Origin: a virus
Strand: one strand, 5' to 3'
DNA length: 40,286 nucleotides
IMG/VR virus record: IMGVR_UViG_3300031111_000018
Coordinates: 1-40,286 of that record
The notes below the pieces were generated by a model. It saw nothing but the letters and a program-made list of their open reading frames with translations. It had not been told where the DNA came from and searched no databases. Shown here one piece after another: positions 52 to 39,705 of this stretch (position 1 is its first letter; the number at the start of each line of letters is the position of its first letter). Position numbers and translations under genes: made by a program.

Positions 52-127
52 GCCAGCGTAGCTCAGTTGGTAGAGCAGCTGATTCGTAATCAGCAGGTCA
101 GGAGTTCGAGTCTCCTCGCTGGCTCCA
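52..127 (+). tRNA. tRNA-Thr (anticodon CGT)
   Basis: The 7-bp acceptor stem GCCAGCG/CGCTGGC (52-58 with 117-123) is followed by discriminator T and an encoded CCA. The anticodon stem GCTGA/TCAGC encloses the loop TTCGTAA, giving anticodon CGT, which reads ACG threonine codons. The D-loop contains GTTGGTAGA and the T-loop TTCGAGT. All 76 positions fit a functional tRNA. Phage genes begin about 330 bp downstream, so the 3' half of this tRNA is the likely attachment site. The second att copy is not in the window. Confidence 0.97.
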
Positions 128-5993: not shown

Positions 5994-6018
5994 GATTACA
6001 AGATAAACCATCATACCA
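5985..6018. promoter_or_regulatory. 10-bp inverted repeat overlapping the promoter and 5' leader
   Basis: TGGTATGATG (5985-5994) and CATCATACCA (6009-6018) are perfect arms separated by 14 bp. The left arm covers the -10 box and the right arm abuts the AAGGAGG ribosome binding site (6018-6024). It fits a repressor operator. Confidence 0.65.
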
Positions 6019-6029
6019 AGGAGGTTTCC

Positions 6030-6568: not shown

Positions 6569-6581
6569 AAAGGAGAGCGAC

Positions 6582-7313: not shown

Positions 7314-7364
7314 ACACCGGCCGGGGGCCTTGCGGTTCCCGGCCACAGTTATGTCGAGGTACGG

Positions 7365-7727
7365 ATGATTTATACGAGCTGTTTCGGGTCGCAGGCTCCG
7401 GCTGAAAGGAAGATATGCATCGCCCGCAAGTGCCCCAAGTCCTGGGGATGCCGGCCGCGTATCCTTGAACTGGCCCCTGAGAATCCATGGGCGAAAGGTG
7501 ACTGGCGGGCGCGTTACAGGGAGGAACTGGCCCTGCGTTTCCCGCGTCCGGAAGATTTGCGAAGCGTACTCGCCCGCGCCGAAAGCATGGCGAAGAACCC
7601 CATCCTGTGCTGCTACGAAGTCGAGTCGGATCAATGCCACCGAAGGGTGCTGGCGGAAGTGGTCATGGAGCGGATCGGTTTTGAACTGCCCGAGTGGACG
7701 GGAGTTGTCCAGGGGAGCTTGCTGTGA
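7365..7727 (+). CDS. DUF488-like protein
   Basis: The 120-aa protein carries the C-terminal signature of DUF488-type proteins: ILCCYEVESDQCHRRVLAEVV (roughly residues 85-105), where a hydrophobic strand ending in C or E is followed by CHR. Family function is not established. The N-terminal part has extra cysteines (C6, C18, C23, C29) that could bind metal. The 3' end overlaps the terminase small-subunit start (GTGA), so it sits in the packaging operon. Confidence 0.6.
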   Translation: MIYTSCFGSQAPAERKICIARKCPKSWGCRPRILELAPENPWAKGDWRARYREELALRFPRPEDLRSVLARAESMAKNPILCCYEVESDQCHRRVLAEVVMERIGFELPEWTGVVQGSLL

Positions 7728-8476
7728 CCGTGTCACGCGAGGATCTGATCCGCGCGCTGGACGAGTCGGACGCCCAATCGTTGGCCGTCTACACGCAGGC
7801 TGTGCAGGACGCCAAGCGCAGCCTGCTTGAGGGGGCCACGACTTCGCGCCTTGACGCCTTGAGGAAGGCCGAGGCCATGCTGAAAGAATTTTTCAGGGAG
7901 AAGGAGGGGGCTGTGGAGACCTTCAGGACCAGGGCGGACGTGTTGCGCCATCTTGAGTCGGAAGGGTGGAAGGTCTCCAAGTCCAAGCTATACCGCGACG
8001 TGGACGACAGGCTCCTGCAACCCGAGGCCGACGGTTGCTTCTCGCTCCGTTCGGTGGAGGCCTACGCCGAGTCCTATCTGCAATACGAGGGGGCGACCGA
8101 CGACGACAAGGCCGACGAGCGCGAGGCCCGGGAACTCCGGATGCGTCGGGAGAGGACGAAGGCCGACAACGAGGATTTGGATAACCGGCTCAAGCAGTTG
8201 AAGGTGGACAGGGAGGAAGGGCGCCTGATCGAGGTGGATACATACAACCAGAACATGGGGGCGGCAGCCTCCATCCTGCGCGATTCCCAGGTGACTTTTT
8301 TCGAGACCAGGACCAAGGAGATCATTTATCGCTGCGGGGGCGATCCTGCCAGGGAGCCCGAGGTCAAGGATTGGCTGCTGGACGTCAGCCTGGACTGGCT
8401 CCACGGGTTCAGCCAAAGGGTGAAGCACAAGATTCCCAATGCGCCGGAGGCCAAGGAGGCGGAAGCCGATGAGTGA
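7724..8476 (+). CDS. Terminase small subunit (Nu1-like)
   Basis: This 250-aa protein recognises the packaging site and recruits the large subunit. A helix-turn-helix-like segment lies around residues 70-105 (ADVLRHLESEGWKVSKSKLY), followed by a long charged coiled-coil-like region (about 120-170) that probably mediates assembly. The GTG at 7724 is preferred over the upstream ATG because GGGGAG precedes it and it overlaps the previous stop by 4 nt. The next gene is a clear gpA-type terminase, which supports the call. Confidence 0.75.
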   Translation: MTVSREDLIRALDESDAQSLAVYTQAVQDAKRSLLEGATTSRLDALRKAEAMLKEFFREKEGAVETFRTRADVLRHLESEGWKVSKSKLYRDVDDRLLQPEADGCFSLRSVEAYAESYLQYEGATDDDKADEREARELRMRRERTKADNEDLDNRLKQLKVDREEGRLIEVDTYNQNMGAAASILRDSQVTFFETRTKEIIYRCGGDPAREPEVKDWLLDVSLDWLHGFSQRVKHKIPNAPEAKEAEADE

Positions 8477-10409
8477 GGCGCTGTTCGAGTTCCCCTTGTC
8501 GGCCAGGCGAATTTTCCGCCGCCCCAGACGGGTCACGGTCAGCGAGTGGAACGAGGCCAACGAGCGGCATATTCCCGTGACCCACCGGGACAAGCGCTGG
8601 AAGAACGTCAACGCCCCGTATGCCGTCGGCCCCATGAATGCGGCTCTTTTTCCGAGTGTCCGTGAGGAGGTGATATGCGCACCGCCGCAGACCGCCAAGA
8701 CGGAGATCCTGTTCTCGGTCTTCGCGTATCTCATCGATCAGCGTCCCGGGCCCACGATGTACATCATGCAGGGCGAGAAGGACGCGCGGACCATGTGCCG
8801 GGACCGCATCCGGCCGATGATCAAGAAGACGCCTGTCCTGGCCGAATACCTGGCGGCGGAGGATGACGACAAGTCTCCTTTGAACCTGCGCCTGCAGCAC
8901 ATGCTTTTTTATCCGGGGTGGGGGTCGTCGGTGTCCGCCCTGGCCTCCAAGCCGATCCGGTATGTCATTTTTGACGAAGAAGACAAGATGCCGGAAACCT
9001 TCAAGAAAGAGACCGACCCCATCAGGCTCGGCAAGCTGCGGACGCGGACGTATTCCGGTTCGGAGCTGGTGTTGCGCGCGTGCTCCCCAACGGTGGAGGA
9101 GGGGTCAATCTGGCGAGGGTTGAACAGCTGCCAGGTCGTGTTCCGCTACGCCGTGCGTTGCCCTTTCTGCGGTCATTTCCAGGTCATGCGCTTCAAGCAG
9201 GTGAAGATACCGGCTGACGAACGGGATCCCGAAAAGATCGAGTCAAAGCGTTTGGCCTGGTATGAATGCGAGGCTCTGGGGTGTCGCTGGACGGACTTGG
9301 ACCGCGACCAGGCCGCCAGGGAAGGGAAGTGGATCACTGACGAAGGGGTGGAGCTGTTCACCTACCTGGACGCCGAACGCCCCAGCCGCATCGGTTTTCA
9401 CTATTCGGCGCTGATCGTGGAGACGGTCAGCATGTCGGCCGCGATCGCCGAACATTTGCGAGGGCTCAAGGACATCAACGCCCGCAAGAATTTTTCCAAC
9501 GCGTTCATGGCTGAGCCGTGGGTGATTTATTCCGTGTCCCGCAACGAAGACCAAGTGCTCGCCTTGCGGGATGCCCGGCCGCGTGGAGTCGTGCCCGGAC
9601 CCGAAGAAGATGGCCTGCCTGTGGTGGCGGCTCTGACCGCGGGAGTCGATACCCAGGACGAACGCCTGTTTTATTACGTCGTCCGCGCCTGGGCCTGGGG
9701 GATGGCGTGGACATCCTGGCTGGTGCAGGAAGGCACGTTGCAGCCCGGCATCGGCAGCGACAGCAGTGAGTGGGAATTGCTGGCACAGTTGCTTTGGGCG
9801 GCCCCGTTCAAGGACCCTGCAGGCAACGAGCACTGGGTGGAGTTGACCGTCCAGGACTCGCGTGGGCACCGGACCCTGGAGGTGTATGATTTCTGTCGGC
9901 GCTTTCCGCGTCGCATCCTGCCCTACGTGGGGCAACAGACCCAGGCCCAGCCGGTCATCTTTCGCAAGGTGGAGTATTACCCCGGCACGGACAAGCCCTA
10001 TCCGGCGGGGCTCAAGCGCATCAACGTGCACAGCAATTTCTTTAAGGACCGCTTGGCCACGCATCTGCAGATCCCGGCCGGCGACCCCGGGCATTTCGCC
10101 CTGCACAGCGAGGTGTCCGAGGACTATGCCCGGCATATGTGCGCCGAGTATGTGGATGAAAAGAGCGGCTTCTGGCGATGCCCCAACTACAAGCGGTCCG
10201 ACTACTGGGACGCCGAGGTCATGGCCATGGTGGGCTGGTACCTCATCCGTGACAGGTACCGGGAACGGCCTGGCCACGCTCCGGAAGCATTGGCGAAAAA
10301 AGATGTCGGGCCGAAGGACTCGACAACTGAGGCCCCGGCCGTGGCGGGCGGCCAGCGGCTTGCGGAAGCGTCGGGCAACGGGCTGCCCGGCTGGTTCATA
10401 GGGAAATAG
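8469..10409 (+). CDS. Terminase large subunit (lambda gpA family)
   Basis: The 646-aa protein is the ATP-driven packaging motor and cos-type nuclease. Motifs seen: a Walker A-like CAPPQTAKTE at 70-79, Walker B VIFDEED at 166-172, a zinc-binding cluster at C231, C234, C267 and C272 (CPFCGH and CEALGC), and the start of the RuvC-like nuclease domain at GVDTQDER with D394. Length matches lambda gpA (641 aa). The ATG at 8469 overlaps the small-subunit gene by 8 nt and follows AAGGAGG. GpA-family terminases usually mean cohesive-ended phages. Confidence 0.93.
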   Translation: MSEALFEFPLSARRIFRRPRRVTVSEWNEANERHIPVTHRDKRWKNVNAPYAVGPMNAALFPSVREEVICAPPQTAKTEILFSVFAYLIDQRPGPTMYIMQGEKDARTMCRDRIRPMIKKTPVLAEYLAAEDDDKSPLNLRLQHMLFYPGWGSSVSALASKPIRYVIFDEEDKMPETFKKETDPIRLGKLRTRTYSGSELVLRACSPTVEEGSIWRGLNSCQVVFRYAVRCPFCGHFQVMRFKQVKIPADERDPEKIESKRLAWYECEALGCRWTDLDRDQAAREGKWITDEGVELFTYLDAERPSRIGFHYSALIVETVSMSAAIAEHLRGLKDINARKNFSNAFMAEPWVIYSVSRNEDQVLALRDARPRGVVPGPEEDGLPVVAALTAGVDTQDERLFYYVVRAWAWGMAWTSWLVQEGTLQPGIGSDSSEWELLAQLLWAAPFKDPAGNEHWVELTVQDSRGHRTLEVYDFCRRFPRRILPYVGQQTQAQPVIFRKVEYYPGTDKPYPAGLKRINVHSNFFKDRLATHLQIPAGDPGHFALHSEVSEDYARHMCAEYVDEKSGFWRCPNYKRSDYWDAEVMAMVGWYLIRDRYRERPGHAPEALAKKDVGPKDSTTEAPAVAGGQRLAEASGNGLPGWFIGK

Positions 10410-10418
10410 GAGGGCGAT

Positions 10419-10610
10419 GTGTCGAAGAAGGGAAAGGGGAAAAAGCTCAACTGGCAACAGTGCTGCGAGCGCATCGGTTGTGGCAAGAGCCATTTCTATG
10501 CCCTGGTGAACGCCGGAACCATCCAGGCGGAGCGTTTCGGAACCCGAAAGGGCATTCGAGTGTACGAGGCGGATCTGGAGAACTATCTGAAGTCGATCAA
10601 GGAGGAGTAG
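10419..10610 (+). CDS. Small HTH (MerR/excisionase-type) DNA-binding protein
   Basis: The 63-aa protein looks like an HTH_17/excisionase-type winged helix: a GCGKSHFYALVNAGTI recognition region followed by a strand ending in VYEADLENYLKS. The GTG start follows AGGAGGGCGAT. Its placement between the terminase and gpW, where lambda has no gene, is odd. A perfect palindrome (10649-10661) lies just downstream and could be its target. It may be an excisionase, a transcription regulator or a packaging-associated factor. Confidence 0.65.
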   Translation: MSKKGKGKKLNWQQCCERIGCGKSHFYALVNAGTIQAERFGTRKGIRVYEADLENYLKSIKEE

Positions 10611-28414: not shown

Positions 28415-30481
28415 ATGGCCTGGGAAAGCATCACCACCGATACCGATCTGGGCGACGCGCCCGGCAAGATCTCCGGCAACCTGACCCTGTTGCGCAACCG
28501 GTTCCTGTCCAGCGGTTCGTGGCCCGACAACCCCGTGGCGGGGCAGTCCTGTGTGCGTTCCGATCGAGATTTTGCGGTGTACACCTACACCGACGACTCG
28601 GAACAGGGCGAGAACGGCTGGGTGGAGGACACGGCCCTGAGCGCCGTGTTCCAGGCCCTGGTCGCCGAGGTGGAGGATGCCCGTTTCGATGCGGCCAGCC
28701 TGGCCGCCTTCCTGGCCGTGGAGCACGACGCGGACGGCGGGCACAAGACAAGCATGGGCCGGGCCGACTGGATCGAGGAGACGGATACCTTGGCCAGGGT
28801 CGGGGACCAGCAGTTCAGCGTGGTCGGGGACCACACGTCCGTGGCCATCGTGGGCCGGGCCGTGGAGATCAACGACGCGGAGCATGGCCACGTGGCCGCC
28901 GCGAGCTACGAGTCGGGCACGGATCTGACCACGGTGACCGTCATGGGCTGCGCCGTGCCCGAAACCCTGAGCAAGGTCGAGTGGGGCCCGGACCCGCGCA
29001 CGGACGGGGTGCACGTGGGGGAAGAGATCGAGCTGACCATCGCTTCGGGCGAGATCTCGCCGCCAGCCGGCGTCGTCTTTATCCGGGTGGACACCGAGGG
29101 CGAGGCCTCGGCCGACGACCTGGAGACCATCGATCTGACCCATGTGCCCAAGGGGTGGCCCCTGGAGCTGCGTTGCGTCAGCGCGGCCCGGCCCGTGACG
29201 CTGAAGCACGGGACGGACGACATCGGGCTTGTCGGGGAGGCCGACGTTGTCCTGGACGATCCCGCCCGCCCCGTGCGCCTGGTGCGGATCGGAAGCGCCA
29301 TGGAGGAGCGCGTGCAGATGCACGGGCATGCCGTGGCCGAGGTGACGGGCCTCCAGGCCGCCCTGGACGCCAAGGCGGATGAAGCCGATCTGGGCACGGC
29401 CGCCGTGGTGGATACCGGCACCGGGGAGGGCGACGTGCCCGTGCTGGACGCGAACGGGCTGTTGCCGCAAACCATGCTGCCCGAGGTTGCCGACGCCACG
29501 GCCCGCCTGAACATCGCCCTGCTGTTGTTCAGGATGATGATCGAGCACGGTCTGAGCGTGCAAGACATGGTAGACGGCTTTGCGGACGAGTTCGAGGACG
29601 AAACCGGCATCGACGACTCGGCTAGCTCCAACTACCTCTACAATGCCGACGAACACCATTTCACGCGGTCGGTCACGCACACCCTGGAAAGCGAATACGC
29701 CCTGTCCAACCGCAACGACAATTGGGATATGTATGCCGGGAACAACGAACAGATCGGGCAAGCCCTCGACCTGTCCTCGGGCATCGACCTGTCCAAGGTC
29801 TGCGTGGCCCTCAAGCGCTACGGCTCGCCCACCGGCAACCTCTATTGCCGCATCTACGAGGCCACGGGCACGTTGGGCTCCTCTGCCGTGCCCACGGGCA
29901 ATGCCTTGGCCGTGTCCGAACCGGTGGACGTGTCCACCATTTCCGATTCGGCATGGGATTGGGTGGAATTCACGTTCCCTGAACTGCCCGCCATTGCCGC
30001 CGGGGACATCTGCGTCGGCATCGACTTCCAGGATGGCGGCGACTCGTCCAATTACATCATGTTCGGCATCGACACCTCGCCCAGCCATGCAGGCAACGCT
30101 TGGCTGACCGATAGCTTTGAAACGGCCTACAACGGCCAGTCCACCAGGGACATCCCCTTCCAGATTCATTCGGGCGTCGGTGACGCCATGACCCTGATTA
30201 CCGAGGCCGTCACCGCCGCGGCCCAGCCGGATGACGGCTGGGTAGTCGCCCTGGCCGAGGGCGGCGACGACCTGGCGTACTCCATGAGCCGCGACGGTGG
30301 AACCACCTGGACGGCCGCGACGCTCGAAGACCAGGGCATCAGCATTAACGGTTATGTAGTCCTTGCCGGGAGCGTGGATCTTTCCAGCCAGCCTTCGGGG
30401 ACGGATATGGTGCTCAAGGCAACGACAACCGGAGACGATTACGTGCGCCTTCATGCGCATGCAGGACAATGGAGCGACTAA
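28415..30481 (+). CDS. Tail fibre / receptor-binding protein
   Basis: The 688-aa protein starts 13 bp after the J-like gene with AAGGAGG before the ATG. The N-terminal half has strand-turn repeats. A segment AEVTGLQAALDAKADEADLG (around residues 308-327) is a typical fibre stalk motif. The region from about 440 to 580 looks like a carbohydrate-binding-type domain (GNLYCRIYEATG, DICVGIDFQDGG). Its 3' half is less GC-biased than the tail genes before it, suggesting exchange of the receptor-binding end. Confidence 0.78.
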   Translation: MAWESITTDTDLGDAPGKISGNLTLLRNRFLSSGSWPDNPVAGQSCVRSDRDFAVYTYTDDSEQGENGWVEDTALSAVFQALVAEVEDARFDAASLAAFLAVEHDADGGHKTSMGRADWIEETDTLARVGDQQFSVVGDHTSVAIVGRAVEINDAEHGHVAAASYESGTDLTTVTVMGCAVPETLSKVEWGPDPRTDGVHVGEEIELTIASGEISPPAGVVFIRVDTEGEASADDLETIDLTHVPKGWPLELRCVSAARPVTLKHGTDDIGLVGEADVVLDDPARPVRLVRIGSAMEERVQMHGHAVAEVTGLQAALDAKADEADLGTAAVVDTGTGEGDVPVLDANGLLPQTMLPEVADATARLNIALLLFRMMIEHGLSVQDMVDGFADEFEDETGIDDSASSNYLYNADEHHFTRSVTHTLESEYALSNRNDNWDMYAGNNEQIGQALDLSSGIDLSKVCVALKRYGSPTGNLYCRIYEATGTLGSSAVPTGNALAVSEPVDVSTISDSAWDWVEFTFPELPAIAAGDICVGIDFQDGGDSSNYIMFGIDTSPSHAGNAWLTDSFETAYNGQSTRDIPFQIHSGVGDAMTLITEAVTAAAQPDDGWVVALAEGGDDLAYSMSRDGGTTWTAATLEDQGISINGYVVLAGSVDLSSQPSGTDMVLKATTTGDDYVRLHAHAGQWSD

Positions 30482-30483
30482 CC

Positions 30484-30714
30484 ATGGCCATCAAGCGAAT
30501 TGGACCGGATGCGAACAAGGACGAGGCCGCCCGGATCAGGGCGATCCGGAACCGCAGGCTGGCCGAGTGTGACTGCTGTGGGCTGGCCGACGTGCGGGCC
30601 TCCATGAACGCCGAGGACGTGGCGGCCTGGGACGTCTACCGCCAAGCCCTGCGCGATCTGCCCGGACAGGCGGGCTTCCCGGACGCCGTGCAGTGGCCGG
30701 TGAAGCCGGAGTAG
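30484..30714 (+). CDS. Small tail-assembly-like protein
   Basis: The 76-aa protein has a CDCCGL motif and a C-terminal stretch YRQALRDLPGQAGFP then WPVKPE, which resembles the C-terminus of phage tail-assembly or fibre-chaperone proteins. It begins 2 bp after the fibre stop, so it is probably co-translated. It is the last gene of the late operon; the CRISPR array starts 48 bp later. Confidence 0.65.
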   Translation: MAIKRIGPDANKDEAARIRAIRNRRLAECDCCGLADVRASMNAEDVAAWDVYRQALRDLPGQAGFPDAVQWPVKPE

Positions 30715-30762: not shown

Positions 30763-31854
30763 GTTGCGGCTTGACCCCATTTCCCCGTCTGCTACGCTCT
30801 ATTCCGCAGGCTCCATGCTGGCCGCCGGGTTGCGGCTTGACCCCATTTCCCCGTCTGCTACGCTGGACGACGGGGTTGGCCCGCCGCTTCGCCTGTTGCG
30901 GCTTGACCCCATTTCCCCGTCTGCTACGCTCTTTTCAGCATCGTATCCTTCGGGAAGCTCGTTGCGGCTTGACCCCATTTCCCCGTCTGCTACGCTAAAA
31001 CCATATCTGTCAGATTGGTGCATAAGGTTGCGGCTTGACCCCATTTCCCCGTCTGCTACGCTCGCCGATGTAGAGTATACTCAACGGCCCTTGTTGCGGC
31101 TTGACCCCATTTCCCCGTCTGCTACGCTAGACAAGGAATGCACGGAATGCGAATTTTAGTTGCGGCTTGACCCCATTTCCCCGTCTGCTACGCTCAGAAG
31201 AACAGCCATGCGGCCTCTGTGATCGTTGCGGCTTGACCCCATTTCCCCGTCTGCTACGCTCGTTACCGTCGCCTGCGCCAACGACCCCACGTTGCGGCTT
31301 GACCCCATTTCCCCGTCTGCTACGCTGATTTCGACACGCCCGAGCTTGCCGTGGTGGTTGCGGCTTGACCCCATTTCCCCGTCTGCTACGCTGAATTCCT
31401 CGTCCAGCCGCTTACCGCCGTCGTTGCGGCTTGACCCCATTTCCCCGTCTGCTACGCTAGGGACTTTGAGGGCATCACCCTACAGCGTGTTGCGGCTTGA
31501 CCCCATTTCCCCGTCTGCTACGCTCCATAGACACGATCCGCGAGGCTCCAAGCTGTTGCGGCTTGACCCCATTTCCCCGTCTGCTACGCTCGGGACACCG
31601 GAGGACGCGGAGCTTGTTGAGTTGCGGCTTGACCCCATTTCCCCGTCTGCTACGCTAAACTTTGCCGATGCTCGGTTGTCCTGTCCGTTGCGGCTTGACC
31701 CCATTTCCCCGTCTGCTACGCTACAGACGACCACGAGCGGCAGGCAGAAGCGGTTGCGGCTTGACCCCATTTCCCCGTCTGCTACGCTGCGCAGGGCGTT
31801 CATGCCCTCGCTGCCTTTGTTGCGGCTTGACCCCATTTCCCCGTCTGCTACGCT
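30763..31854 (+). CRISPR. Type II-C CRISPR array: 17 identical 36-bp repeats, 16 spacers of 30 bp
   Basis: The repeat begins GTTGCGGCTTGACCCC and ends GTCTGCTACGCT. It recurs with an exact 66-bp period from 30763 to 31819, last copy ending at 31854. I find no base differences among the copies, and every spacer is exactly 30 bp. The crRNA orientation is the + strand because the repeat pairs with the anti-repeat of the + strand tracrRNA at 35340. There is no AT-rich leader in the 48 bp before the first repeat, but each repeat carries its own promoter-like boxes. Several spacers read through as plausible protein fragments; no spacer obviously matches this prophage. Confidence 0.99.
30771..30798 (+). 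promoter_or_regulatory. Promoter-like boxes inside each CRISPR repeat (first copy given)
   Basis: TTGACC (repeat positions 9-14) is separated by 16 bp from TACGCT (31-36), preceded by TGC to give an extended -10. The same boxes occur in all 17 repeats, so each spacer could have its own transcript starting within it. Neisseria type II-C repeats end in a closely similar TGCTACAAT and are known to work this way. Confidence 0.7.
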
Positions 31855-31865
31855 CCACCTCCAGC

Positions 31866-31899
31866 AAACCCCCTGAAAAATAAGCTTTTCAGGGGGTTT
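31866..31899. terminator. Bidirectional intrinsic terminator between array and cas9
   Basis: Perfect 14-bp arms AAACCCCCTGAAAA (31866-31879) and its complement (31886-31899) flank a 6-nt loop, with A-rich and T-rich ends suited to both directions. It lies 11 bp past the last repeat. It would stop crRNA transcripts coming rightwards and cas9 transcripts coming leftwards. Confidence 0.88.
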
Positions 31900-31983
31900 G
31901 GCCGTTCAAAAACGGCATCCGGCAGCTAGAACAGGGCGAGTTGTCTTGGATTTTTCCGGCGGGTTTTGGCCCTGGAACGGAAC

Positions 31984-32091
31984 CAGAGGAATCCGTCCCA
32001 GCCTTTCCCCGCCGTCGTGGACGGCCAGGAAGCCGCGTTCCTTGCACAGGTGCCGGTTGTTACCGGCGATCTCCACCGCCTGGGGCAGCAT
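31984..32091 (-). pseudogene. cas1: cas1 5' remnant overlapping the cas9 stop
   Basis: On the minus strand an ATG at 32089-32091, inside the last codons of cas9, opens a frame whose first 36 residues follow the N-terminus of type II-C Cas1 proteins: a VEIAG strand, NNRHLCKERGFLAV, then DGGERLGRIPL. A good Shine-Dalgarno, GGAGGTG (32099-32105), stands 7 nt before this ATG. After LGRIPL the similarity ends, and the frame runs 25 unrelated codons to a stop at 31906. Cas1 is normally about 300 aa, so nearly all of cas1, and all of cas2, are gone. I identify it from memory of the family pattern, not a search. Confidence 0.7.
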
Positions 32092-35000
32092 GGCAGGGCA
32101 CCTCCGGGTAGAGCACCCTGCCGATGGGGTCCACGTAGATGGGCCTCGCGCCGGCCTTCTGCAACGCGACCGGGCTGCCCTTGTAGATTTTTGGGTCGGG
32201 CTTGCGCCGGTCAACGTCCGCCTCGCGGTGTTCGGCTAGGGCGATCTGCTTTTCGGACAGCTTGACTACATAGACGATCCTTCGCTCGCCGTTTTCGTTC
32301 AACTCCAGCATGTCATTGCTGAACAGCCGGGTGATCAGCGGATAGCCCTGTTCCTCGCACCGGGTCCTGAATCCGGGCCGGTGCGCGTCCAGCCGGGACA
32401 CGATGTCGCCGTCCCAGGTTCCGTCCGGACGTAGCCGGATTTCATAAAACGCATTGCTGCCGGTCTTGACCCCTTTGTATGCCAAGCGAGACTTGTCGCG
32501 GATCGGGGTCAGGGCCACCGTCTCGAGCAGCCGCACCCGGCGCATGCCCTTGCGGGCGGCGAACGCGGCCACTTGTTCTGTAAAGTCTGTATCGGCCATG
32601 CCGACGATGGAGTTTATCTCTGCCTTGGCCTCCTTTTTCTGCATGTCCTGCCATCTGTTGAAGTCCTGGATGCATTGGCCCACACTGCGGCCGGTGACCG
32701 CGCTCAACAGTTCGGCGCGCAGACGCCTGCCTTTTACTTTGAGGAGCTGGTCGGGCTTGGTCAGCTTGGAGATCGGGGCGTACTTTTGGGCGTTCCCGGG
32801 CGAGCCGTTGCCATCCAAGATGCCGAAGGGGTTTTCGTCATGCAGCTGGCCGCCGATGCCGTGGTCGGGCCGGTGTGAGACCACGACGCCCTCGGCCGCC
32901 TCCAGGACCTGGTCCCGGAATCCGGGCCAGGGCTCGGCCAAATCGGCCAGGAAGCGCTCCACCCCCTGGTCCACCTCCCGGGCGCGCAGGTCGGCCACGC
33001 GCTTGAGCAGGCCTCTGTCCGTGACCCCGATGAGCGCTGCGTCCACGGCGTGGTGGCGATGGTCGATGCGCTGCTTGCGGACGAATCCCTCCGGGGTGAG
33101 CACGAGGTGGCGGTACCGGCCGGGCTCGGGCGGAGCGCCTTGGCCGTGCGCCAGCCAGCGCGCGGCCAGCAGGGAGGTGAGCCTGCCCGGGGTGGCCCAG
33201 ACCGGCGCGGACCTTCTCGGCGCGTACAGGCAGGAGAGGTATTCCCGGGCCACCCGGGAGATGTACTGGGTGTCCACGAGCTGGCGGTCCAGGAAGTCGC
33301 CCTTCTCCATGAAGCGTTCCAGGGCGTCGGGCGCGAAACGCTTGCGCTTGTTCTGCGGCATGGCGTTGGCCCGCTCCAGGATGCCTTCCCAGTCGTATCC
33401 GTCCCTGGATCGGCCAAAGGCCTCGAACGGGGTGCGGTTTTCCTTGTAGCGGTTGGCCCGGCGCAGGCTGACGGTCATGTTGGCCGGGCTGTTGTCCAGG
33501 GTGCGGGCAAAGGGCAGGATGTGCTCCACCTCCACCTCGGCCGAGAACAGGCGGCGCATGGAAATCTGCTCCCCGGTGTAGGGGCAGCGGCGGGTGGCCG
33601 GGTCCTGGGCCAGTTCCTCCCACAGCCGCATCCGCAGGAGCGCGTCGCGGGTCACCGGGACGCCCAGTTCCTTGAGCTGTTGCTCCCGGCGTTCGTTGTC
33701 CTTGCGGTTCTCTGCCTGGCGTTTTTTGATCTCGCGCCGGGCCTGGGGCCCGTTCTTGAGGTCGCGGGCCACTTCCAGCACGATCTGCGCGGGGACGCCG
33801 TGGGCCTTGACGAGTTCGTTGACCACCCGGCGTACCTGGTTCAGGGCGATGTGCACCGTGGGGTTGGTGATCCGGCCGTAGCGCTCCTCGGCCCGGTCGG
33901 CGGGATGGCCGCTGCCGAAGGTCACGTGGCGCTGGAGCACGAGGCCGTAGAAGGGCAGGCGTTCAAAGACTTCGCCGGTGTCGAACTGGGAGTGGGAGCC
34001 GTAGCCGGCCCGGACCACGGCCTCGGCATAGGGCACGACCTCGGCGGCCAGTTCGCGGGTCACGGCGTGCAGGGCCTTGCGCGACAGGCGCGAGTAGCCC
34101 GTGGGCAGGGGGGCGTCGGCCACCTTGGCGGCCCGGGCCGGGTCCAGGCCCCAATCGGCAGTGAGCAGGCCGAGCAGCTCGGACTCGTCCTCGATGTCCA
34201 GGAGCAGGTCCGCCAGGCGCTCCTGGTCCTCGGGGGAGAAGCCATGCCAACGCGGGCCGAAGCGGCCCTTGTGGCCCAGGACCTTGGCCGTGCCGTCGCC
34301 CTTGATCTTGTCACGGTTCGCGGCCTCCAGGGAGAAGGTCCAGCCCTCGGGGAGCCTGAGCTTCTTGCGCACCTGGTCAAAGGTCAGGTCCCTGCCCTTG
34401 AGCAGGTGTCCGGCCAGGGTATCGCGCTCGGCCAAGGTCAGGGGCCGCTCCTCCAGTTCCGGGGACTGGGCGCGCAGGTGGTTGAGCTCCTGGAGGATGC
34501 GGAAGCGCTGGGCCACGGGCAGGGCCGCCGGTGCTCGCTGCTCCAAGGGCTCGAAGGTGCAGCGGCCCGGGTTCACGGGCTGGAGGGGCAGCTGGAAGAA
34601 GACGATGTCCCGGATCTCCTCCCGGGCCTCGTGGGTGAGTTCGGCGTGGTGCTCGGCCTGGGCCGACCACAGGGCGTCGAACTCCTCCTCCACCAGGGAC
34701 CGCTCGGGGTAGAAATCGTACCCGGCCTTGGCGCCCTTGCCCTGGAGCCTGGCGCGCACGGTGAGGCCTTTGCCGTGCCTGTGGTTCAGGAACTCGCCCA
34801 GGGTGCGGGTCCCGGAGTCGGCCATGAGACCCCGCAGTTTCTGGATGGCGGGCTTGATCTTGCCGGACTCCTCGTCCTTGTCCACCTTGCGGTTGCTGCG
34901 GAAGCCCCGGCGCTGGTTGAGATGGAACAGGGCCCGTCCCAGCTCGTGCAAGGTCAGCGGGGCGTCCAGGCCCCGGGCGCGCAGGGCATAGGGGTTCAGG

Positions 35001-35287
35001 GCTTCCAGGGACTTGCGCTCGGTCTCGGCCGCTGGCATGAGCCCGTGCCGGACCAGGGCGTCCATGAGCCGCCCGCGCCGACGCAGATAGCGGTCGCGCA
35101 TGCGGCGCATCTGGCGCTTGAGGCGGCGGTCGGCGGCCAGGGAGGCTTGGTTCTTGGGGTTGCGGCCGTCCTGGAAGATGCGCACGCCCATGCCCAGGAT
35201 GCCGCGGGGGCGATCCCGCGGGTCCAGGTCCAGCATGCACCAGCCGATGGAATTCGTGCCCAGGTCCAGGGCGAGTCTGTATGGCAT
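32060..35287 (-). CDS. cas9: CRISPR-associated endonuclease Cas9 (type II-C)
   Basis: The 1075-aa protein is close to N. meningitidis Cas9 in size. Order: RuvC-I LALDLGTNSIGW with D8; arginine-rich bridge helix about 48-78; REC lobe to about 490; RuvC-II IVLEVARDL with E505; HNH VEHILPF with H589 and N612; RuvC-III DHRHHAVDAALIG with H746 and D749; WED/PAM-interacting region about 840-1075. All catalytic residues are present, so it should cut both strands of crRNA-matched DNA. The ATG at 35287 (AAGGGGG upstream) is preferred over a TTG 42 nt earlier because RuvC-I begins at once. The 3' end overlaps the cas1 remnant. Its strand matches the SNase, OLD and repressor genes. Confidence 0.97.
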   Translation of the reverse strand: MPYRLALDLGTNSIGWCMLDLDPRDRPRGILGMGVRIFQDGRNPKNQASLAADRRLKRQMRRMRDRYLRRRGRLMDALVRHGLMPAAETERKSLEALNPYALRARGLDAPLTLHELGRALFHLNQRRGFRSNRKVDKDEESGKIKPAIQKLRGLMADSGTRTLGEFLNHRHGKGLTVRARLQGKGAKAGYDFYPERSLVEEEFDALWSAQAEHHAELTHEAREEIRDIVFFQLPLQPVNPGRCTFEPLEQRAPAALPVAQRFRILQELNHLRAQSPELEERPLTLAERDTLAGHLLKGRDLTFDQVRKKLRLPEGWTFSLEAANRDKIKGDGTAKVLGHKGRFGPRWHGFSPEDQERLADLLLDIEDESELLGLLTADWGLDPARAAKVADAPLPTGYSRLSRKALHAVTRELAAEVVPYAEAVVRAGYGSHSQFDTGEVFERLPFYGLVLQRHVTFGSGHPADRAEERYGRITNPTVHIALNQVRRVVNELVKAHGVPAQIVLEVARDLKNGPQARREIKKRQAENRKDNERREQQLKELGVPVTRDALLRMRLWEELAQDPATRRCPYTGEQISMRRLFSAEVEVEHILPFARTLDNSPANMTVSLRRANRYKENRTPFEAFGRSRDGYDWEGILERANAMPQNKRKRFAPDALERFMEKGDFLDRQLVDTQYISRVAREYLSCLYAPRRSAPVWATPGRLTSLLAARWLAHGQGAPPEPGRYRHLVLTPEGFVRKQRIDHRHHAVDAALIGVTDRGLLKRVADLRAREVDQGVERFLADLAEPWPGFRDQVLEAAEGVVVSHRPDHGIGGQLHDENPFGILDGNGSPGNAQKYAPISKLTKPDQLLKVKGRRLRAELLSAVTGRSVGQCIQDFNRWQDMQKKEAKAEINSIVGMADTDFTEQVAAFAARKGMRRVRLLETVALTPIRDKSRLAYKGVKTGSNAFYEIRLRPDGTWDGDIVSRLDAHRPGFRTRCEEQGYPLITRLFSNDMLELNENGERRIVYVVKLSEKQIALAEHREADVDRRKPDPKIYKGSPVALQKAGARPIYVDPIGRVLYPEVPCHAAPGGGDRR

Positions 35288-35297
35288 GGCAACCCCC

Positions 35298-35326
35298 TTG
35301 TCTTGCGTGCCGTTTTGGGCTACGGT
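35298..35326 (+). promoter_or_regulatory. Candidate tracrRNA promoter
   Basis: TTGTCT (35298-35303), a 17-bp spacer, and TACGGT (35321-35326) would start transcription near 35333, just before the anti-repeat. The boxes lie within the cas9 5' untranslated region on the opposite strand. Confidence 0.55.
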
Positions 35327-35332
35327 CAATGC

Positions 35333-35423
35333 ATCCTTTGTAGCAGAAGGAGAAATGGGGTCTTCAACAAGTCGTTAACAAGTTGAAGAACACCAGCAAG
35401 GCGGACCACGGTCCGCCTTTTGC
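35333..35423 (+). ncRNA. tracrRNA
   Basis: The anti-repeat at 35340-35362 begins GTAGCAGAAGG and ends AAATGGGGTC. It pairs with repeat positions 11-33, with only two internal mismatches in 23 positions. CAAC at 35365-35368 can pair with the GTTG that opens the repeat, leaving a 6/2-nt internal loop like the bulge of other tracrRNA:crRNA duplexes. The tail contains CTTCAAC/GTTGAAG (35362-35368 with 35382-35388) and ends in a terminator hairpin AAGGCGGAC/GTCCGCCTT (35398-35419) plus T-run. Length is about 90 nt; ends are estimates. Confidence 0.9.
35337..35345 (-). promoter_or_regulatory. Extended -10 element for cas9 within the anti-repeat
   Basis: Read on the minus strand, the anti-repeat contains TGCTACAAA, an extended -10 equivalent to the TGCTACGCT of the repeats. 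It is placed to start cas9 mRNA near 35330, about 42 nt before the ATG. The -35 region is poor (TTGAAG 19 bp upstream, or AAGACC at 16 bp). Confidence 0.55.
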
Positions 35424-35470: not shown

Positions 35471-35947
35471 TCACTCACGGTGCCCTTCACGCGTTTCCGT
35501 TCCAAGCGACCAGAGTCCTTCCCCGTCAGTCCCGGCCTTGTTTCCGGCTTCCCTGATCTCGTCCACGTGGGCCACGTTGGGCGGGTAGGTGGCGGGCACG
35601 GCCAGCCCGGCCCGGACGAGCTCCAGGTTGAGCATGCGGCCGTCCACCCAGACATAGGCCAGGTTGCGGCCGTAGCGGTCCACCGGCTGGACATCCATCT
35701 CAAGGACCACGTCGCGCTCCAGCACGGCGCGGGACGTGAACGCCTTGGCCTCCTTGTAGCCCGGCTCCCCTCGCTCCGGGGTGTCCATGCCGATGAGGCG
35801 CACCGTGGACCGCAGGCCTCCGACCTCTACGGCGATGGTGTCGCCGTCCACCACGTAGACGCACCTGGCCTGGATGCGCTGGCCGGCCAGGGCGGGCAGG
35901 GCGGCCAGGACCACGGCCAGCAGGGCCAGGACGCGCAATTGGGTCAT
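35471..35947 (-). CDS. Exported thermonuclease (SNase family)
   Basis: The 158-aa protein starts with a signal-peptide-like stretch (residues 1-22, ending ALPALAG). The staphylococcal-nuclease fold follows, with YVVDGDTIAV, VRLIGMDTPERGEPGYKEAK and DRYGRNLAYVWVDG, the regions that carry the calcium ligands and the catalytic arginine and glutamate. It would degrade DNA or RNA outside the cytoplasm, probably in the periplasm. The start overlaps the upstream OB-fold gene by 4 nt. In a prophage moron position it could attack incoming phage DNA; that is inference. Confidence 0.85.
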   Translation of the reverse strand: MTQLRVLALLAVVLAALPALAGQRIQARCVYVVDGDTIAVEVGGLRSTVRLIGMDTPERGEPGYKEAKAFTSRAVLERDVVLEMDVQPVDRYGRNLAYVWVDGRMLNLELVRAGLAVPATYPPNVAHVDEIREAGNKAGTDGEGLWSLGTETREGHRE

Positions 35948-36351
35948 GGCAATTCGCACTCCTTGAGCCGGGGCATGCCCATGGACAGGCCCGCGCCCGT
36001 GCCCTGGACCGTGACGCTCTGGCCCTTGGCCAGGGCGGCGACCTGCCCCTCGCTCTTGCCGGGGAACTCGCATCGCACCGCGCCGCCCTGGCCGGTCAGG
36101 ATCAGGTAGGCCCCGCCGGCCAGGCCGCGGCCGATCTCGGCCACCATGCCGCTGACCATCACGGGCTGGTCGCGGTAGCGCTGGTCCGCGGCCACCTCGT
36201 TGCGCTGGTAGGCGTCGGCCAGGCCTCCCGGGCTGACGGCCATGACCCGGGCCGTGGTCCCGGCGTCCTTCCTGTCCGGGGCCGGGACAAGCAGGATCAC
36301 GCCCCACAACACGGCCGCGCACAGGGCCAGGATGGCGATGCCTCGTTTCAT
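35944..36351 (-). CDS. Membrane-anchored OB-fold (tRNA_anti-like) protein
   Basis: The 135-aa protein has an N-terminal hydrophobic anchor or signal (about residues 4-23). A small beta-barrel domain with PVMVSGMVAEIGRGLAGGAYLIL and SVTVQGTGAG strands follows, typical of OB-fold tRNA_anti-like domains. Its stop overlaps the SNase start (ATGA), so the two are made together and probably act together at the envelope. Binding partner unknown. Confidence 0.65.
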   Translation of the reverse strand: MKRGIAILALCAAVLWGVILLVPAPDRKDAGTTARVMAVSPGGLADAYQRNEVAADQRYRDQPVMVSGMVAEIGRGLAGGAYLILTGQGGAVRCEFPGKSEGQVAALAKGQSVTVQGTGAGLSMGMPRLKECELP

Positions 36352-36366
36352 GCGGGGCCTCCGTCG

Positions 36367-38079
36367 TCAGCTTGCTGCCCAGTCCAAAAAAGTCTTCACC
36401 GTGGTTTGGTCGGCAACGGCCGCCATGCCCGCAGCATCTAACTGGGCCTTGAACGCAGAATGGTTGCGCGGTTTCTTTCCGTCCAGACCGAGATGGTCCT
36501 CGATTGTTCCGCCCGGCCAAATCCAAATCCCGTCCGCCTTCAGGCTGTCGTGCAAGGCCTTGATGTTCTTTTCGACCATCGGGTCTTGGCACATGGCCTT
36601 GCATCCGTTTGCATTGCTGTTTTTATTCAAGCGGGCGAGGACCGCCTCGCAGGCTTGACGGTCCGGGTTGTCGGGGGAGCAAAAGCTTTCACCATTGAAA
36701 GCGGCGTCCAGGTCAACCAGAATCTTGGCCTCAATGCCCATGGCTCGAAGGATGGCCCGGGTCTTTGGTATGCTGTCCTTGCCCTCAACGATCACCAGGG
36801 CGAGGCGGTCGCCGCCCATGCCCCGGCCGTGGTGCAGTCGGTAAAGGGGAGGAAGAAGACGTTTTTCAGTCGGCCCCTCCGCGATCAGGGCACGCTCGCA
36901 GAACAGAATCTTACTGGCGTGATCCAGGGAGAAGAGAATCTCGGTCTGGGTCGGTCCATCCTTGCAGGCCTGCGCATAGTAGGCCTTCTCAAAGGACGTC
37001 CTGCACTTGGTCCCGCCGTCGTCGCCTTTGAAGACGACATGGGTGTTGGGGACGTCCTCGGCCTCCACGAACATGGGGGAGTGGGTGGAGAAAACCACTT
37101 GATAGTTCGCTTTGGACAGGCGCTTGAGGGACTCTCTGGCCTGCTCGATGGCCTGGGGGTGGAGGTAGAGCTCCGGCTCGTCCACCAGGAGCAGCGTGCA
37201 TGTCGAGGAGCCGCCGCCGTCGCGGTTCCGTTCGGCAAGGCACTGCACCAGGGACATCTGCACCGAGCGGAGCGCGCCGTGCCCGAGGGAATCAATGCCG
37301 CGCCAGCCGGGAAGGGCCTGGTCCTCGACCTGGATAGTGCCGCTCTTGAACATGACCTCCAGGGATGGTGCCGGGATGTGGGTGCGCAGCTTCAGGTCGG
37401 GGAAGTAGCCCTGGAGGATGCGGGTGGCGGCCTCGTCGATGTCCGTTAACTCCTGGGGCCTGGCCGCGCCGTCTGCGGATAAGATGTCCTTGAGTTCGTC
37501 CACGGCCTTTTTGAGTTCGGTTTCCCGTGCCGCCTGCACCGCACCCTGGATGGCGCCGAGCAGCTTGCCGATGGTTGTCCCGGCTTTGAACTTTCCGGAA
37601 TCCTCGACCGCGTCGACCATGGCCTCGATGTGGATAGGCTCCGGGAACAGGGCTTTCATGGCTGCGGGGATGCCAGCGGGATTTTTCCAGGAGTCGGCAT
37701 CGGTGGGGTCGCTGCCTGGGGTAAGGAGGGATACCGTTATTTGACTAGCTGGGGTCGTCGTGAGCTCTTGCTTTTGGCGAATCCAAAGCGTGCCGTTGTC
37801 AACATAGTCCTCGATCTTTTTCCGATTCTTGGCTTCCAGTTTATCGAGGATGTCCTCGGTGATGCCCTCGATGCGGCCCGTGGCCACCACCGGGCTGTTC
37901 GTGTCGAAGAAGTCCTTCTCGCCGAGGCCGCTCTTGTTCAGCAGCCAAATCAGGCCACGGATGACGTTGGACTTGCCTACGTTGTTGTGCCCGACCAGGG
38001 GCGTGTAGCGCCAGAGGTCGAATTCGATGTCTTTGCAGGAGCGGAAGTTTTGGAGTCGGAGCCAGGAGATGTGGTGCAT
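36367..38079 (-). CDS. OLD-family ATP-dependent nuclease (ABC ATPase plus TOPRIM)
   Basis: The 570-aa protein has Walker A GHNNVGKSN at 30-38, an ABC signature-like LGHGALRS at 265-272, Walker B LLLVDEPE at 296-303 and an H-loop STHSP with H333. A C-terminal TOPRIM domain has LIAEGPTE at 398-405 and DLD at 456-458. This is the architecture of P2 OLD and related anti-phage nucleases. No UvrD-like helicase is adjacent, so it is a single-gene OLD and not Gabija. AAGGAG precedes the ATG. It likely excludes other phages from the lysogen. Confidence 0.88.
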   Translation of the reverse strand: MHHISWLRLQNFRSCKDIEFDLWRYTPLVGHNNVGKSNVIRGLIWLLNKSGLGEKDFFDTNSPVVATGRIEGITEDILDKLEAKNRKKIEDYVDNGTLWIRQKQELTTTPASQITVSLLTPGSDPTDADSWKNPAGIPAAMKALFPEPIHIEAMVDAVEDSGKFKAGTTIGKLLGAIQGAVQAARETELKKAVDELKDILSADGAARPQELTDIDEAATRILQGYFPDLKLRTHIPAPSLEVMFKSGTIQVEDQALPGWRGIDSLGHGALRSVQMSLVQCLAERNRDGGGSSTCTLLLVDEPELYLHPQAIEQARESLKRLSKANYQVVFSTHSPMFVEAEDVPNTHVVFKGDDGGTKCRTSFEKAYYAQACKDGPTQTEILFSLDHASKILFCERALIAEGPTEKRLLPPLYRLHHGRGMGGDRLALVIVEGKDSIPKTRAILRAMGIEAKILVDLDAAFNGESFCSPDNPDRQACEAVLARLNKNSNANGCKAMCQDPMVEKNIKALHDSLKADGIWIWPGGTIEDHLGLDGKKPRNHSAFKAQLDAAGMAAVADQTTVKTFLDWAAS

Positions 38080-38210: not shown

Positions 38211-38699
38211 TCACTCTGAGCCCCCGGCGGCCGTGTCCGGGGGGGTGTCGTCGGGGTCGCCGTAGGGGGCCCGTTCTTCCTGCACGGCTTCGTAGGGCAT
38301 CGCGGGCTCGGCCAGGGGCGAGCCGTAGCGGGCCGGGCCGCGCACCAGGTCCACCAGGGCGCGGCGGATGGTGGGCTCGTCGGCCCCGTTGTCCTTGAGC
38401 AGCTTGACCAGCGTCTCCATGCGCTGGGCCACGGGATCGACCAGGCCTTGCCCCGGCGCGGCCTCGGCCGCTGTCGCCGCTTCCTCCAGAAACATCGGTC
38501 CCATGCCCGTCAGCAGCCAGTTGGCGTTGACCCCGAAATTCAGCACCCAGGCCCCGACCACGTCGGCCGACGGCTGGCTCGTTCCCTTGAGGTAGCCCGT
38601 GATGGTGGACGGCCTGAGCTCGCCCGCCGCCGCCAGGGCCTTTTTTTCAAGCCCCGCTGTTTCGATAAATTCGCGTAGTCGTTTCGAGAAATCGGTCAT
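38211..38699 (-). CDS. CI-type prophage repressor without peptidase domain
   Basis: The 162-aa protein has an XRE-like helix-turn-helix around residues 17-45 (KKALAAAGELRPSTITGYLKG). It is followed by the VNANWLLTGMGPMF signature common in phage repressors. The C-terminal half is acidic and proline-rich, with no S24/LexA-type serine-lysine peptidase. The ATG at 38699 is selected because a promoter (TTGAAA, 17 bp, TATATC) would start mRNA only about 8 nt before it, as in lambda cI from PRM. Upstream in-frame starts at 38756 and 38858 are less likely. Confidence 0.8.
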   Translation of the reverse strand: MTDFSKRLREFIETAGLEKKALAAAGELRPSTITGYLKGTSQPSADVVGAWVLNFGVNANWLLTGMGPMFLEEAATAAEAAPGQGLVDPVAQRMETLVKLLKDNGADEPTIRRALVDLVRGPARYGSPLAEPAMPYEAVQEERAPYGDPDDTPPDTAAGGSE

Positions 38700-38711
38700 T
38701 TCGGGCCTGGC

Positions 38712-38740
38712 GATATAGTTTTCTTGCACTTTGGTTTCAA
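38712..38740 (-). promoter_or_regulatory. Repressor maintenance promoter (PRM-like)
   Basis: On the minus strand TTGAAA (38735-38740), a 17-bp spacer, then TATATC (38712-38717). The predicted start point is only a few bases from the repressor ATG, giving an almost leaderless mRNA. Confidence 0.65.
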
Positions 38741-38744
38741 CTTT

Positions 38745-38776
38745 ACTTGACTTCATTTCAAGTTTTATCGTAAACG
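38745..38776 (+). promoter_or_regulatory. Operator dyad and rightward early promoter (PR-like)
   Basis: ACTTGA (38745-38750) and TCAAGT (38758-38763) form a dyad with a 7-bp centre. TTGACT (38747-38752), inside the dyad, is a -35 box followed after 18 bp by TAAACG (38771-38776). Repressor binding would block rightward transcription and lie just upstream of the divergent repressor promoter. Confidence 0.6.
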
Positions 38777-38817
38777 TGGCTCCGTAATCTCGAAAACTCG
38801 AAACGGAGCAAGGCCTC

Positions 38818-39069
38818 ATGCCCAATGAAGGTTTAAAGCTAAACCTGCGTCCCCCCACCCGTCAAGACAGGCTGGCAGCGTTCTTTGCCCTCTACGGCAT
38901 CGAGAGGGGCGAGGTGGCCGCGGCCTTGGGCGTCTCTCCCCAGATGCTGTCCAAGATCTGCAAGAGCGATCGCGCCCCCGCCCGCCACCTTAAGGCCATG
39001 CAGCAGATGGGCTTCCCCGCGCATCTGCTGCCCGAGCCCAATTCCGGCAACGGGCGGGCGGCGGCCTAG
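38818..39069 (+). CDS. Cro-like small HTH protein
   Basis: The 83-aa protein is transcribed divergently from the repressor. It has a helix-turn-helix at about residues 30-50 (GEVAAALGVSPQMLSKICKS). GGAG and AAGG lie before the ATG. In this place it should compete with the repressor for the operators and commit the phage to lytic growth. Confidence 0.75.
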   Translation: MPNEGLKLNLRPPTRQDRLAAFFALYGIERGEVAAALGVSPQMLSKICKSDRAPARHLKAMQQMGFPAHLLPEPNSGNGRAAA

Positions 39070-39144
39070 AAAACTTTTAAGCATGACGCCTTTCTGCCCA
39101 CATGGGACCGGGCAGGCAAGGTGAACTTCAGGAGGGGACTCACC

Positions 39145-39705
39145 ATGGCCAAGGGCTTTTTCGATGGCCTGGAACAACTGCTTGGCGGACGTTGCCTGCC
39201 GTCGTGCTGCCTGGAGGACCTGGGGCGGCTCAATTTCCAGGCCGCCCTGGAACTGGCCAAGAGTCATGCCGTCGGCGACCACGAGGACTGGGCCGACGCC
39301 CTGAACATGGACGTGTCCACGATCCACCGGGCCATGGCCGCCAACCCGTCCGACCGCCGCTACTTCGTGACCTTCTCCAAGGTGCCGTCCCTGTCCGTGG
39401 CCATGGGCACTCCCTTGCTGCTGCTGTGGGCCTTGGCCCGTTATTTCCACCTGGCCGGGGCCAGCGACCTGGACCTGCCCGAGGCCGTGAATCCGGCCCG
39501 GGCCATGCGCTACCTGGCCAACGTGATCAAGGAGGCGGGCGAAGCCGTGGATGCCGTGGCCGACGGGGCCGCGGACGGAAGTTTCGACCTGGACGAGGTG
39601 CAAAAGGCCGAGAAGGAGGTCCTTGACCTGCTCATGCCCGTCTTCGCTCTGCTGACCGGCCTGGGCGCCGTGCGCGCCCGCCTGGAAACGGAACTGCAGC
39701 GGTGA
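39145..39705 (+). CDS. Phage early regulatory protein (CII-position)
   Basis: The 186-aa protein is second in the rightward early operon. Residues 45-75 (HEDWADALNMDVSTIHRAMAAN) look like a helix-turn-helix. A long acidic helix follows (about 130-175). The ATG at 39145 is chosen for AGGAGGGG upstream; an in-frame GTG at 39121 is less likely. Similar proteins in phages of this type are annotated as regulatory, without known target. Confidence 0.6.
   Translation: MAKGFFDGLEQLLGGRCLPSCCLEDLGRLNFQAALELAKSHAVGDHEDWADALNMDVSTIHRAMAANPSDRRYFVTFSKVPSLSVAMGTPLLLLWALARYFHLAGASDLDLPEAVNPARAMRYLANVIKEAGEAVDAVADGAADGSFDLDEVQKAEKEVLDLLMPVFALLTGLGAVRARLETELQR

What the first reader, a model, noticed from the sequence alone, without database searches (positions are those of the whole stretch)
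30763..35423. Prophage-borne minimal type II-C CRISPR-Cas9 system without adaptation genes
Seen: array, complete Cas9 and tracrRNA in under 4.7 kb, placed 48 bp after the last tail gene and followed by nuclease morons and the phage immunity region. No tRNA 3'-end duplicate or integrase separates it from the phage modules on either side. Known: phage-encoded CRISPR systems exist (ICP1 type I-F, CRISPR in huge phages), but Cas9 with its own tracrRNA and array in a temperate lambda-like prophage is uncommon. Inference: the prophage uses stored spacers to exclude competing phages or plasmids from its lysogen, and the system could move with the phage.
Basis: partly seen in the sequence, partly recalled or inferred. 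Interest (0 to 1): 0.95.

Follow-up and report, generated by a model that had tools for sequence, protein, structure and literature searches.

The report
Prophage carrying a deletion-frozen Cas9 system
A temperate virus, probably of a Desulfovibrio-like bacterium, carries a complete Cas9 DNA-cutting machine with 16 stored targets but has lost, through a still-visible deletion, the two genes needed to store new ones; a second, separately derived virus shows the same pattern in the same genome slot.

Summary
Observation confirmed: 17 identical 36-nt repeats with 16 unique 30-nt spacers (30763-31854), a full 1,075-aa Cas9 (32060-35287, -) with intact catalytic motifs, and a divergent tracrRNA (~35340-35422, +), between a tail module and a repressor/Cro/CII region. 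The IMG/VR record (40,286 bp) ends before any integrase, so its right boundary is unseen.

Between cas9 and the array lies a two-sided scar, cas1 codons 1-36 joined (1 nt between) to the last 18 codons of cas2. A canonical cas9-cas1-cas2-array (type II-C) locus lost ~1.07 kb.

One other IMG/VR record (G001, 54 kb) has the same phage layout and the same CRISPR slot, with a repressor, clamp and tyrosine integrase beyond the CRISPR, so there it lies inside the prophage. It too lacks cas1-cas2, through a different deletion. The two Cas9s have different bacterial sisters; one shared clade is rejected (AU p=0.0002). Capture and loss therefore probably happened twice.

Best explanation: an interference-only, lysogen-protecting cassette beside an Old nuclease. 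No protospacer was found, so targets are unproven. Phage Cas9 without adaptation genes is already reported: a new member of a known kind.

The parts
52..127 (+). tRNA-Thr (CGT), probable attL end of the prophage
   Evidence: ARAGORN and Rfam. G001 has a different tRNA (Leu) in the same place just before the P4-type primase. att role inferred.
30469..30714 (+). tail assembly chaperone, last gene of the tail module
   Evidence: PF16778 E=7e-22
30763..31854 (+). CRISPR array: 17 identical 36-nt repeats GTTGCGGCTTGACCCCATTTCCCCGTCTGCTACGCT, 16 unique 30-nt spacers
   Evidence: crRNA strand set by complementarity to the tracrRNA
31857..31905 (.). inverted repeat AAACCCCCTGAAAA..TTTTCAGGGGGTTT, terminator-like, between the cas2 remnant and the array
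   Evidence: read directly from the sequence; a hairpin follows cas2 before the array in Desulfovibrio sp. DV too
31926..31982 (-). cas2 remnant: last 18 codons (FRSRAKTRRKNPRQLALF) plus stop
   Evidence: best of 1281 stop-anchored 18-mers in the window against five cas2 C-termini, score 44 versus 8.6 for the next; coordinates
31984..32091 (-). cas1 remnant: codons 1-36 (MLPQAVEIAGNNRHLCKERGFLAVHDGGERLGRIPL), overlapping the cas9 end by 29-32 nt as in the intact locus of Desulfovibrio sp. DV
   Evidence: tblastn of DV Cas1, 70% identity over 33 aa, E=5e-9
32060..35287 (-). cas9, 1075 aa
   Evidence: TIGR01865 E=3e-180, Pfam HNH_4 and RuvC_III, PADLOC Cas9, catalytic motifs
35340..35422 (+). 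tracrRNA: anti-repeat 35340-35362, hairpin, terminator hairpin ~35398-35419
35471..35947 (-). thermonuclease-like protein (SNase), 158 aa, hydrophobic N-terminus
   Evidence: PF00565 E=6e-20; start
35944..36351 (-). tRNA_anti-like protein, weakly like superinfection-exclusion Sie proteins
   Evidence: PF12869, phrog_8545 E=2e-8
36367..38079 (-). Old-family ATPase-TOPRIM nuclease
   Evidence: PADLOC Old E=2e-185 over 1-567; OLD-like TOPRIM
38211..38858 (-). phage repressor
   Evidence: phrog_2328 E=3e-13
38818..39069 (+). Cro-like regulator
   Evidence: HTH_3, phrog_2328
39121..39705 (+). CII-like activator
   Evidence: phrog_101 E=1e-7

Best explanation
A temperate phage, probably of a Desulfovibrio-like host, captured a bacterial type II-C locus (tracrRNA <- cas9 -> cas1 -> cas2, array) into the accessory-gene slot between its tail operon and its repressor-linked minus-strand genes. 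An internal deletion of about 1.07 kb then removed most of cas1 and cas2. What is left is an interference-only system: Cas9 (on the same strand as the repressor), tracrRNA and 16 crRNAs. In the lysogen it would cut incoming DNA matching the stored spacers and so protect prophage and host, beside an Old-type nuclease and probable exclusion genes. Shown: the parts, their order, the scar, intact catalytic motifs, an RNA scaffold shared with bacterial loci, and a second phage with the same slot and an independent deletion. Inferred: expression in the lysogen, RNA-guided cutting, targets, the selective reason for losing adaptation, and packaging in the virion.
For: Cas9, array and tracrRNA all intact. 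Scar with both ends identifiable: cas1 codons 1-36 then cas2 last 18 codons. Nearest Cas9 relatives in bacteria sit in cas9-cas1-cas2 loci. G001 carries the same kind of locus in the same slot: tail protein, array, cas9, tracrRNA, minus-strand accessory genes, repressor, Cro-like, CII-like, clamp, integrase. G001 deletion has other endpoints: the cas9 3' end runs into a repeat, whose TAG ends the reading frame. Cas9 tree: window with G340/G228 (95/96), G001 with Desulfovibrio sp. DV (100/100, 80% identity, same repeat); one phage clade rejected, AU p=0.0002. tracrRNA hairpin keeps pairing in the window through a double change G-C to A-U. Old-family nuclease next door.
Against: No protospacer found for any spacer in GenBank phages, plasmids or 345 genomes of the order, nor for four 20-nt spacer ends in IMG/VR. 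Both records are metagenome assemblies, so a chimeric join is not fully excluded. The window lacks attR and integrase. No sigma-70 consensus promoter was found in the repeats or before tracrRNA.
Confidence: 0.72

Rival explanations
1. The locus can still gain spacers in trans: a host Cas1-Cas2 of a related II-C system, together with the phage's Cas9 and tracrRNA, adds spacers to the phage array.
For: The stretch between the cas2 remnant and the array is retained in the window. All 17 repeats are identical, as expected of a young or recently active array. A plasmid type IV-A system borrowing host adaptation proteins is described in PMC11656645. The G001 repeat is identical to that of Desulfovibrio sp. 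DV, which has cas1-cas2.
Against: No genome of 345 in the order carries the window's exact repeat; the nearest are 2-3 mismatches away, in systems whose Cas9 is only 36% identical. In G001 the cas9-proximal flank of the array is deleted. Only one copy of each array is known, so no spacer gain has been seen.
Confidence: 0.12
2. A dying passenger: a host CRISPR locus swept into the prophage by recombination, already decaying (cas1-cas2 gone), with no benefit to the phage.
For: cas1-cas2 lost; no targets found; the scar is well preserved (26 of 36 cas1 codons match G340 by eye), so the loss may be recent and the rest may simply not have decayed yet.
Against: Cas9, 17 perfect repeats and tracrRNA are intact, whereas only the adaptation genes are lost, and the same selective loss occurred separately in G001, whose Cas9 is also open over 1051 aa.
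Confidence: 0.1
3. A phage weapon against its own host or host elements (as the ICP1 system is), not a lysogen shield.
For: Known for phage CRISPR systems; spacer targets here are unknown.
Against: cas9 lies in the repressor-side, minus-strand accessory block of a temperate phage, next to Old. No spacer matches any of 345 genomes of the order over its full length.
Confidence: 0.1
4. Assembly chimera or a host island between two prophage fragments.
For: Metagenome record; right end cut; arrays are prone to misassembly.
Against: G001, from another record, shows the same order on both sides of the CRISPR, with repressor, Cro-like, CII-like, clamp and integrase beyond it. GC is similar across the region.
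Confidence: 0.05

Closest known systems
CampyICE1 degenerate type II-C CRISPR-Cas9 (PMC8743540)
   Same: Lone Cas9 of type II-C on an integrated mobile element, with tracrRNA and arrays, no cas1 or cas2; spacers thought to exclude rival elements.
   Different: It is on a 70-129 kb ICE with three short scattered arrays and plasmid-matching spacers. Here a phage, one 16-spacer array beside cas9, no known targets, and a readable cas1/cas2 scar.
Type II (Cas9) and other CRISPR systems of huge phages (PMC7162821)
   Same: Phage-encoded Cas9; almost all phage systems reported there lack Cas1, Cas2 and Cas4; catalytic residues conserved.
   Different: Those are phage genomes over 200 kb. Here lambda-portal-type temperate prophages of about 40-54 kb, with the locus in a fixed slot next to the immunity region.
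Bacterial cas9-cas1-cas2 type II-C loci of Desulfovibrio sp. DV (L002) and of genomes G340, G228, G094, G183
   Same: Same tracrRNA architecture, similar repeats, Cas9 51-62% identical, same cas9/cas1 overlap in DV.
   Different: They keep full cas1 and cas2 and no phage structural genes were seen at the two checked (L061, L063).
P2 old and similar prophage defence genes
   Same: Old-family nuclease expressed by a prophage as defence; here it lies in the same accessory block.
   Different: P2 carries no CRISPR; the expression of this block is inferred only.

Membership tests
Type II CRISPR-Cas | Cas9 with RuvC and HNH domains and intact catalytic residues | tested here: met
Type II CRISPR-Cas | tracrRNA with anti-repeat complementary to the array repeat | tested here: met
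   21 of 23 positions complementary, structure conserved with bacterial loci
Subtype II-C | operon of cas9, cas1 and cas2 only (no csn2 or cas4) | tested here: not met
   The present locus has only remnants of cas1 and cas2. Its nearest relatives do have cas9-cas1-cas2, so it descends from II-C; no csn2 or cas4 in the flanking genes that were scanned.
Subtype II-C | Cas9 falls among Cas9s of cas9-cas1-cas2 loci | tested here: met
   tree
Adaptation-less CRISPR of mobile elements | located inside a mobile element | tested here: inconclusive
   Phage modules on both sides in the window, but no integrase or attR; met in the relative G001
Adaptation-less CRISPR of mobile elements | no functional cas1/cas2 on the element | tested here: met
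   the window record is incomplete at its right end
Adaptation-less CRISPR of mobile elements | spacers match competing mobile elements | tested here: inconclusive
   no full protospacer in the collections searched
Neisseria-type II-C arrays with a promoter in each repeat | extended -10 promoter at the repeat's 3' end | tested here: inconclusive
   repeat holds TTGACC-16-TACGCT preceded by TGC, read by eye; the sigma-70 scan did not call it; the Neisseria comparison is from memory

The most novel reading that the evidence does not exclude
A recurrent evolutionary route: small temperate phages repeatedly take up whole bacterial Cas9 loci in one slot between tail and immunity genes and then delete cas1-cas2, leaving a fixed spacer set, perhaps because a phage-borne adaptation module would be costly in genome space or would risk spacers against the phage itself.
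Probability: 0.35. Interest if true: 0.75.

Novelty: new member of a known kind. Interest (0 to 1): 0.62.

Why it matters
Phage CRISPR systems are known to lack spacer-acquisition genes, but usually one cannot see whether those genes were never there or were lost. Here the break points are readable, and two phages with separately derived Cas9s lost the same genes by different deletions in the same slot. That makes testable the question of why phages discard adaptation: genome size, self-targeting, or borrowing from the host. It also gives a compact (4.7 kb) interference cassette in an ordinary temperate phage.

Tried and rejected
Protospacers: whole array and spacers alone against GenBank phages and plasmids, spacers against 345 genomes of the order of Desulfovibrio sp. 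DV, four 20-nt spacer 3' ends against IMG/VR, local loci: nothing convincing. The 345-genome search scores only a few candidates per genome, so it can miss some. Spacer 8 and 10 near-matches (4-5 mismatches) fall in a VCBS-type repeat protein and a host signalling-type gene and were rejected as chance. Relatives of the phage by tail-tip and terminase proteins in IMG/VR: none, so the scans gave no empty-site comparison. Terminase relatives at about 33-45% identity are in 43 of 345 genomes; in none is a Cas9 hit within 60 kb on the same contig, read from the two tables. Exact window repeat in those genomes: none. Alcaligenaceae contig L004 (49% Cas9) was checked for phage genes: five of the six neighbours identified are ordinary metabolism or transport genes and one a TetR regulator. 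att search in window and G001: no second tRNA end. A whole host genome could not be examined: G000 is a virus record.

Full report
What is there. The window is a whole IMG/VR record of 40,286 bases, linear. From the left it holds a tRNA-Thr, a P4-type primase, a DnaG-like primase, a methylase/GNAT-like protein, GpA-type terminase, lambda-type portal, S49 protease, gpE-type capsid, tail tube, tape measure, tip protein and a tail chaperone ending at 30714. The CRISPR array begins 48 nt later: 17 identical 36-nt repeats and 16 unique 30-nt spacers, 30763-31854. Cas9 is on the minus strand (32060-35287, 1075 aa; TIGR01865 E=3e-180). A tracrRNA on the plus strand starts with an anti-repeat at 35340 and ends in a terminator hairpin near 35420. 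Then, all on the minus strand, come a thermonuclease-like gene, a tRNA_anti-like gene, an Old-family nuclease and the repressor, with Cro-like and CII-like genes divergent on the plus strand. The record ends there, with no integrase and no second tRNA end.

The scar. Searching the window with DV Cas1 gave an unexpected hit of 33 aa at 70% identity (E=5e-9): the first 36 codons of cas1 lie at 32091-31984 on the minus strand, overlapping the end of cas9 as in DV. One nucleotide further on come 18 codons ending at 31926 that match the C-terminus of cas2: FRSRAKTRRKNPRQLALF in the window, FQSRIRKRRKNPDQYALF in G340. Of 1281 stop-anchored 18-mers in the window this one scores 44 against five cas2 tails, the next best 8.6. 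Using G340 as yardstick, about 1.07 kb is missing. The system is thus a former complete II-C locus with an internal deletion. The remnants are still about as similar to their relatives as intact genes are, which suggests, but does not prove, a recent loss (inference).

A second case. A pattern search of IMG/VR found one relative, IMGVR_UViG_3300010381_000013 (G001), and a repeat-pattern scan found the same record and no other. I fetched all 54 kb. It has tRNA-Leu, P4-type primase, DnaG-like primase, GpA terminase, tape measure and tail proteins. An array of 15 repeats and 14 spacers, whose first repeat is degenerate, follows directly on the tail gene; then cas9 on the minus strand and a divergent tracrRNA. 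Beyond it lie an HNH/HIT-type gene (read from its translation), a methyltransferase, a GtrB-like gene, a phage endonuclease, a repressor, Cro-like and CII-like genes, a clamp-like protein and, at the very end, a tyrosine integrase (PF00589, E=5e-27) (Cro-like and CII-like by position and by eye). So in G001 the CRISPR locus lies between the tRNA end and the integrase, that is, within the prophage. It has no Cas1, and its cas9 runs straight into a repeat that supplies the stop codon: a different deletion from that in the window.

Two captures. In a tree of 16 Cas9s the window groups with G340 and G228 (95/96), G001 with Desulfovibrio sp. DV (100/100; 80% identity and the same repeat). Forcing the two phage Cas9s into one clade costs 291 log-likelihood units, AU p=0.0002. 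The simplest reading is two captures and two losses of cas1-cas2 at the same phage position. Exchange of the whole locus inside an older phage lineage is an alternative I cannot exclude. Of 345 genomes of the order, 43 carry a related terminase and none of these has a Cas9 hit within 60 kb on that contig.

Is it functional? Catalytic motifs are present. The tracrRNA fold is far more stable than shuffles (z=-4.6) and is shared with bacterial loci. In the window one hairpin pair has changed on both sides, G-C to A-U, keeping the pair. The predicted repeat:anti-repeat duplex is strong (-36.9 kcal/mol), although the window's anti-repeat pairs slightly better on paper with the DV repeat (-38.7), so the pair is not perfectly matched. 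The sigma-70 scan found no promoter in the repeats. Expression and cutting are therefore inferred.

Targets. No protospacer was found. One weak lead: 21 contiguous bases of spacer 16 are identical to a stretch of tyrosine-integrase genes in genomes G252 and G256, in the frame KGSEGMNALR versus WRSEGMNARL; the outer bases differ. The 14 spacers of G001 gave no match at E<=0.005 in the same genomes, so such hits are not common, but one partial match is not evidence of a target.

How it most likely works. Cas9 lies on the repressor's strand, next to an Old nuclease and probable exclusion genes, in a temperate phage. The best-supported model is an interference-only shield for the lysogen with a spacer set inherited from the captured locus. 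Rivals are acquisition in trans by host Cas1-Cas2, a decaying passenger, a weapon against host elements, and an assembly artefact.

Known or new. Cas9 systems in phages, almost all without Cas1, Cas2 or Cas4, were reported from huge phages (PMC7162821). A lone II-C Cas9 without cas1-cas2 on an ICE, with plasmid-matching spacers, is CampyICE1 (PMC8743540). A review lists further cases of CRISPR in mobile elements (PMC11656645). The kind is known; the readable, twice-arisen loss in one prophage slot is the new part. Literature coverage here is limited to open-licence papers, and the 2022 survey of virus-encoded CRISPR systems cited in that review could not be read.

Noticed in passing
window 35471-38079: Minus-strand accessory block between Cas9 and the repressor: thermonuclease-like, tRNA_anti-like (weakly Sie-like) and Old-family nuclease; looks like a lysogen defence cluster.
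   Followed up: partly
window 31789-31818 (spacer 16): 21-nt identical core with tyrosine-integrase genes of G252 (two places) and G256; outer bases differ. Possible integrase-directed spacer.
   Followed up: partly
window 4562-5944: Single protein joining a phage DAM-like domain (PF22555) and a phage GNAT-like domain (PF22559).
   Followed up: no
window 52-127 and G001 1828-1912: Two phages of the same layout start next to different tRNAs (Thr, Leu), directly before the P4-type primase, suggesting changed attachment sites with the same genome order.
   Followed up: partly
G001 39368-40423 (L021/L022): Protein next to the phage tracrRNA that by its translation joins an HNH-like and a HIT-like stretch; no family search was run on it.
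   Followed up: no
L061 (G228) 5867-10425: Two integrase genes beside a bacterial cas9-cas1-cas2 locus, so that locus may itself be on a mobile island.
   Followed up: no
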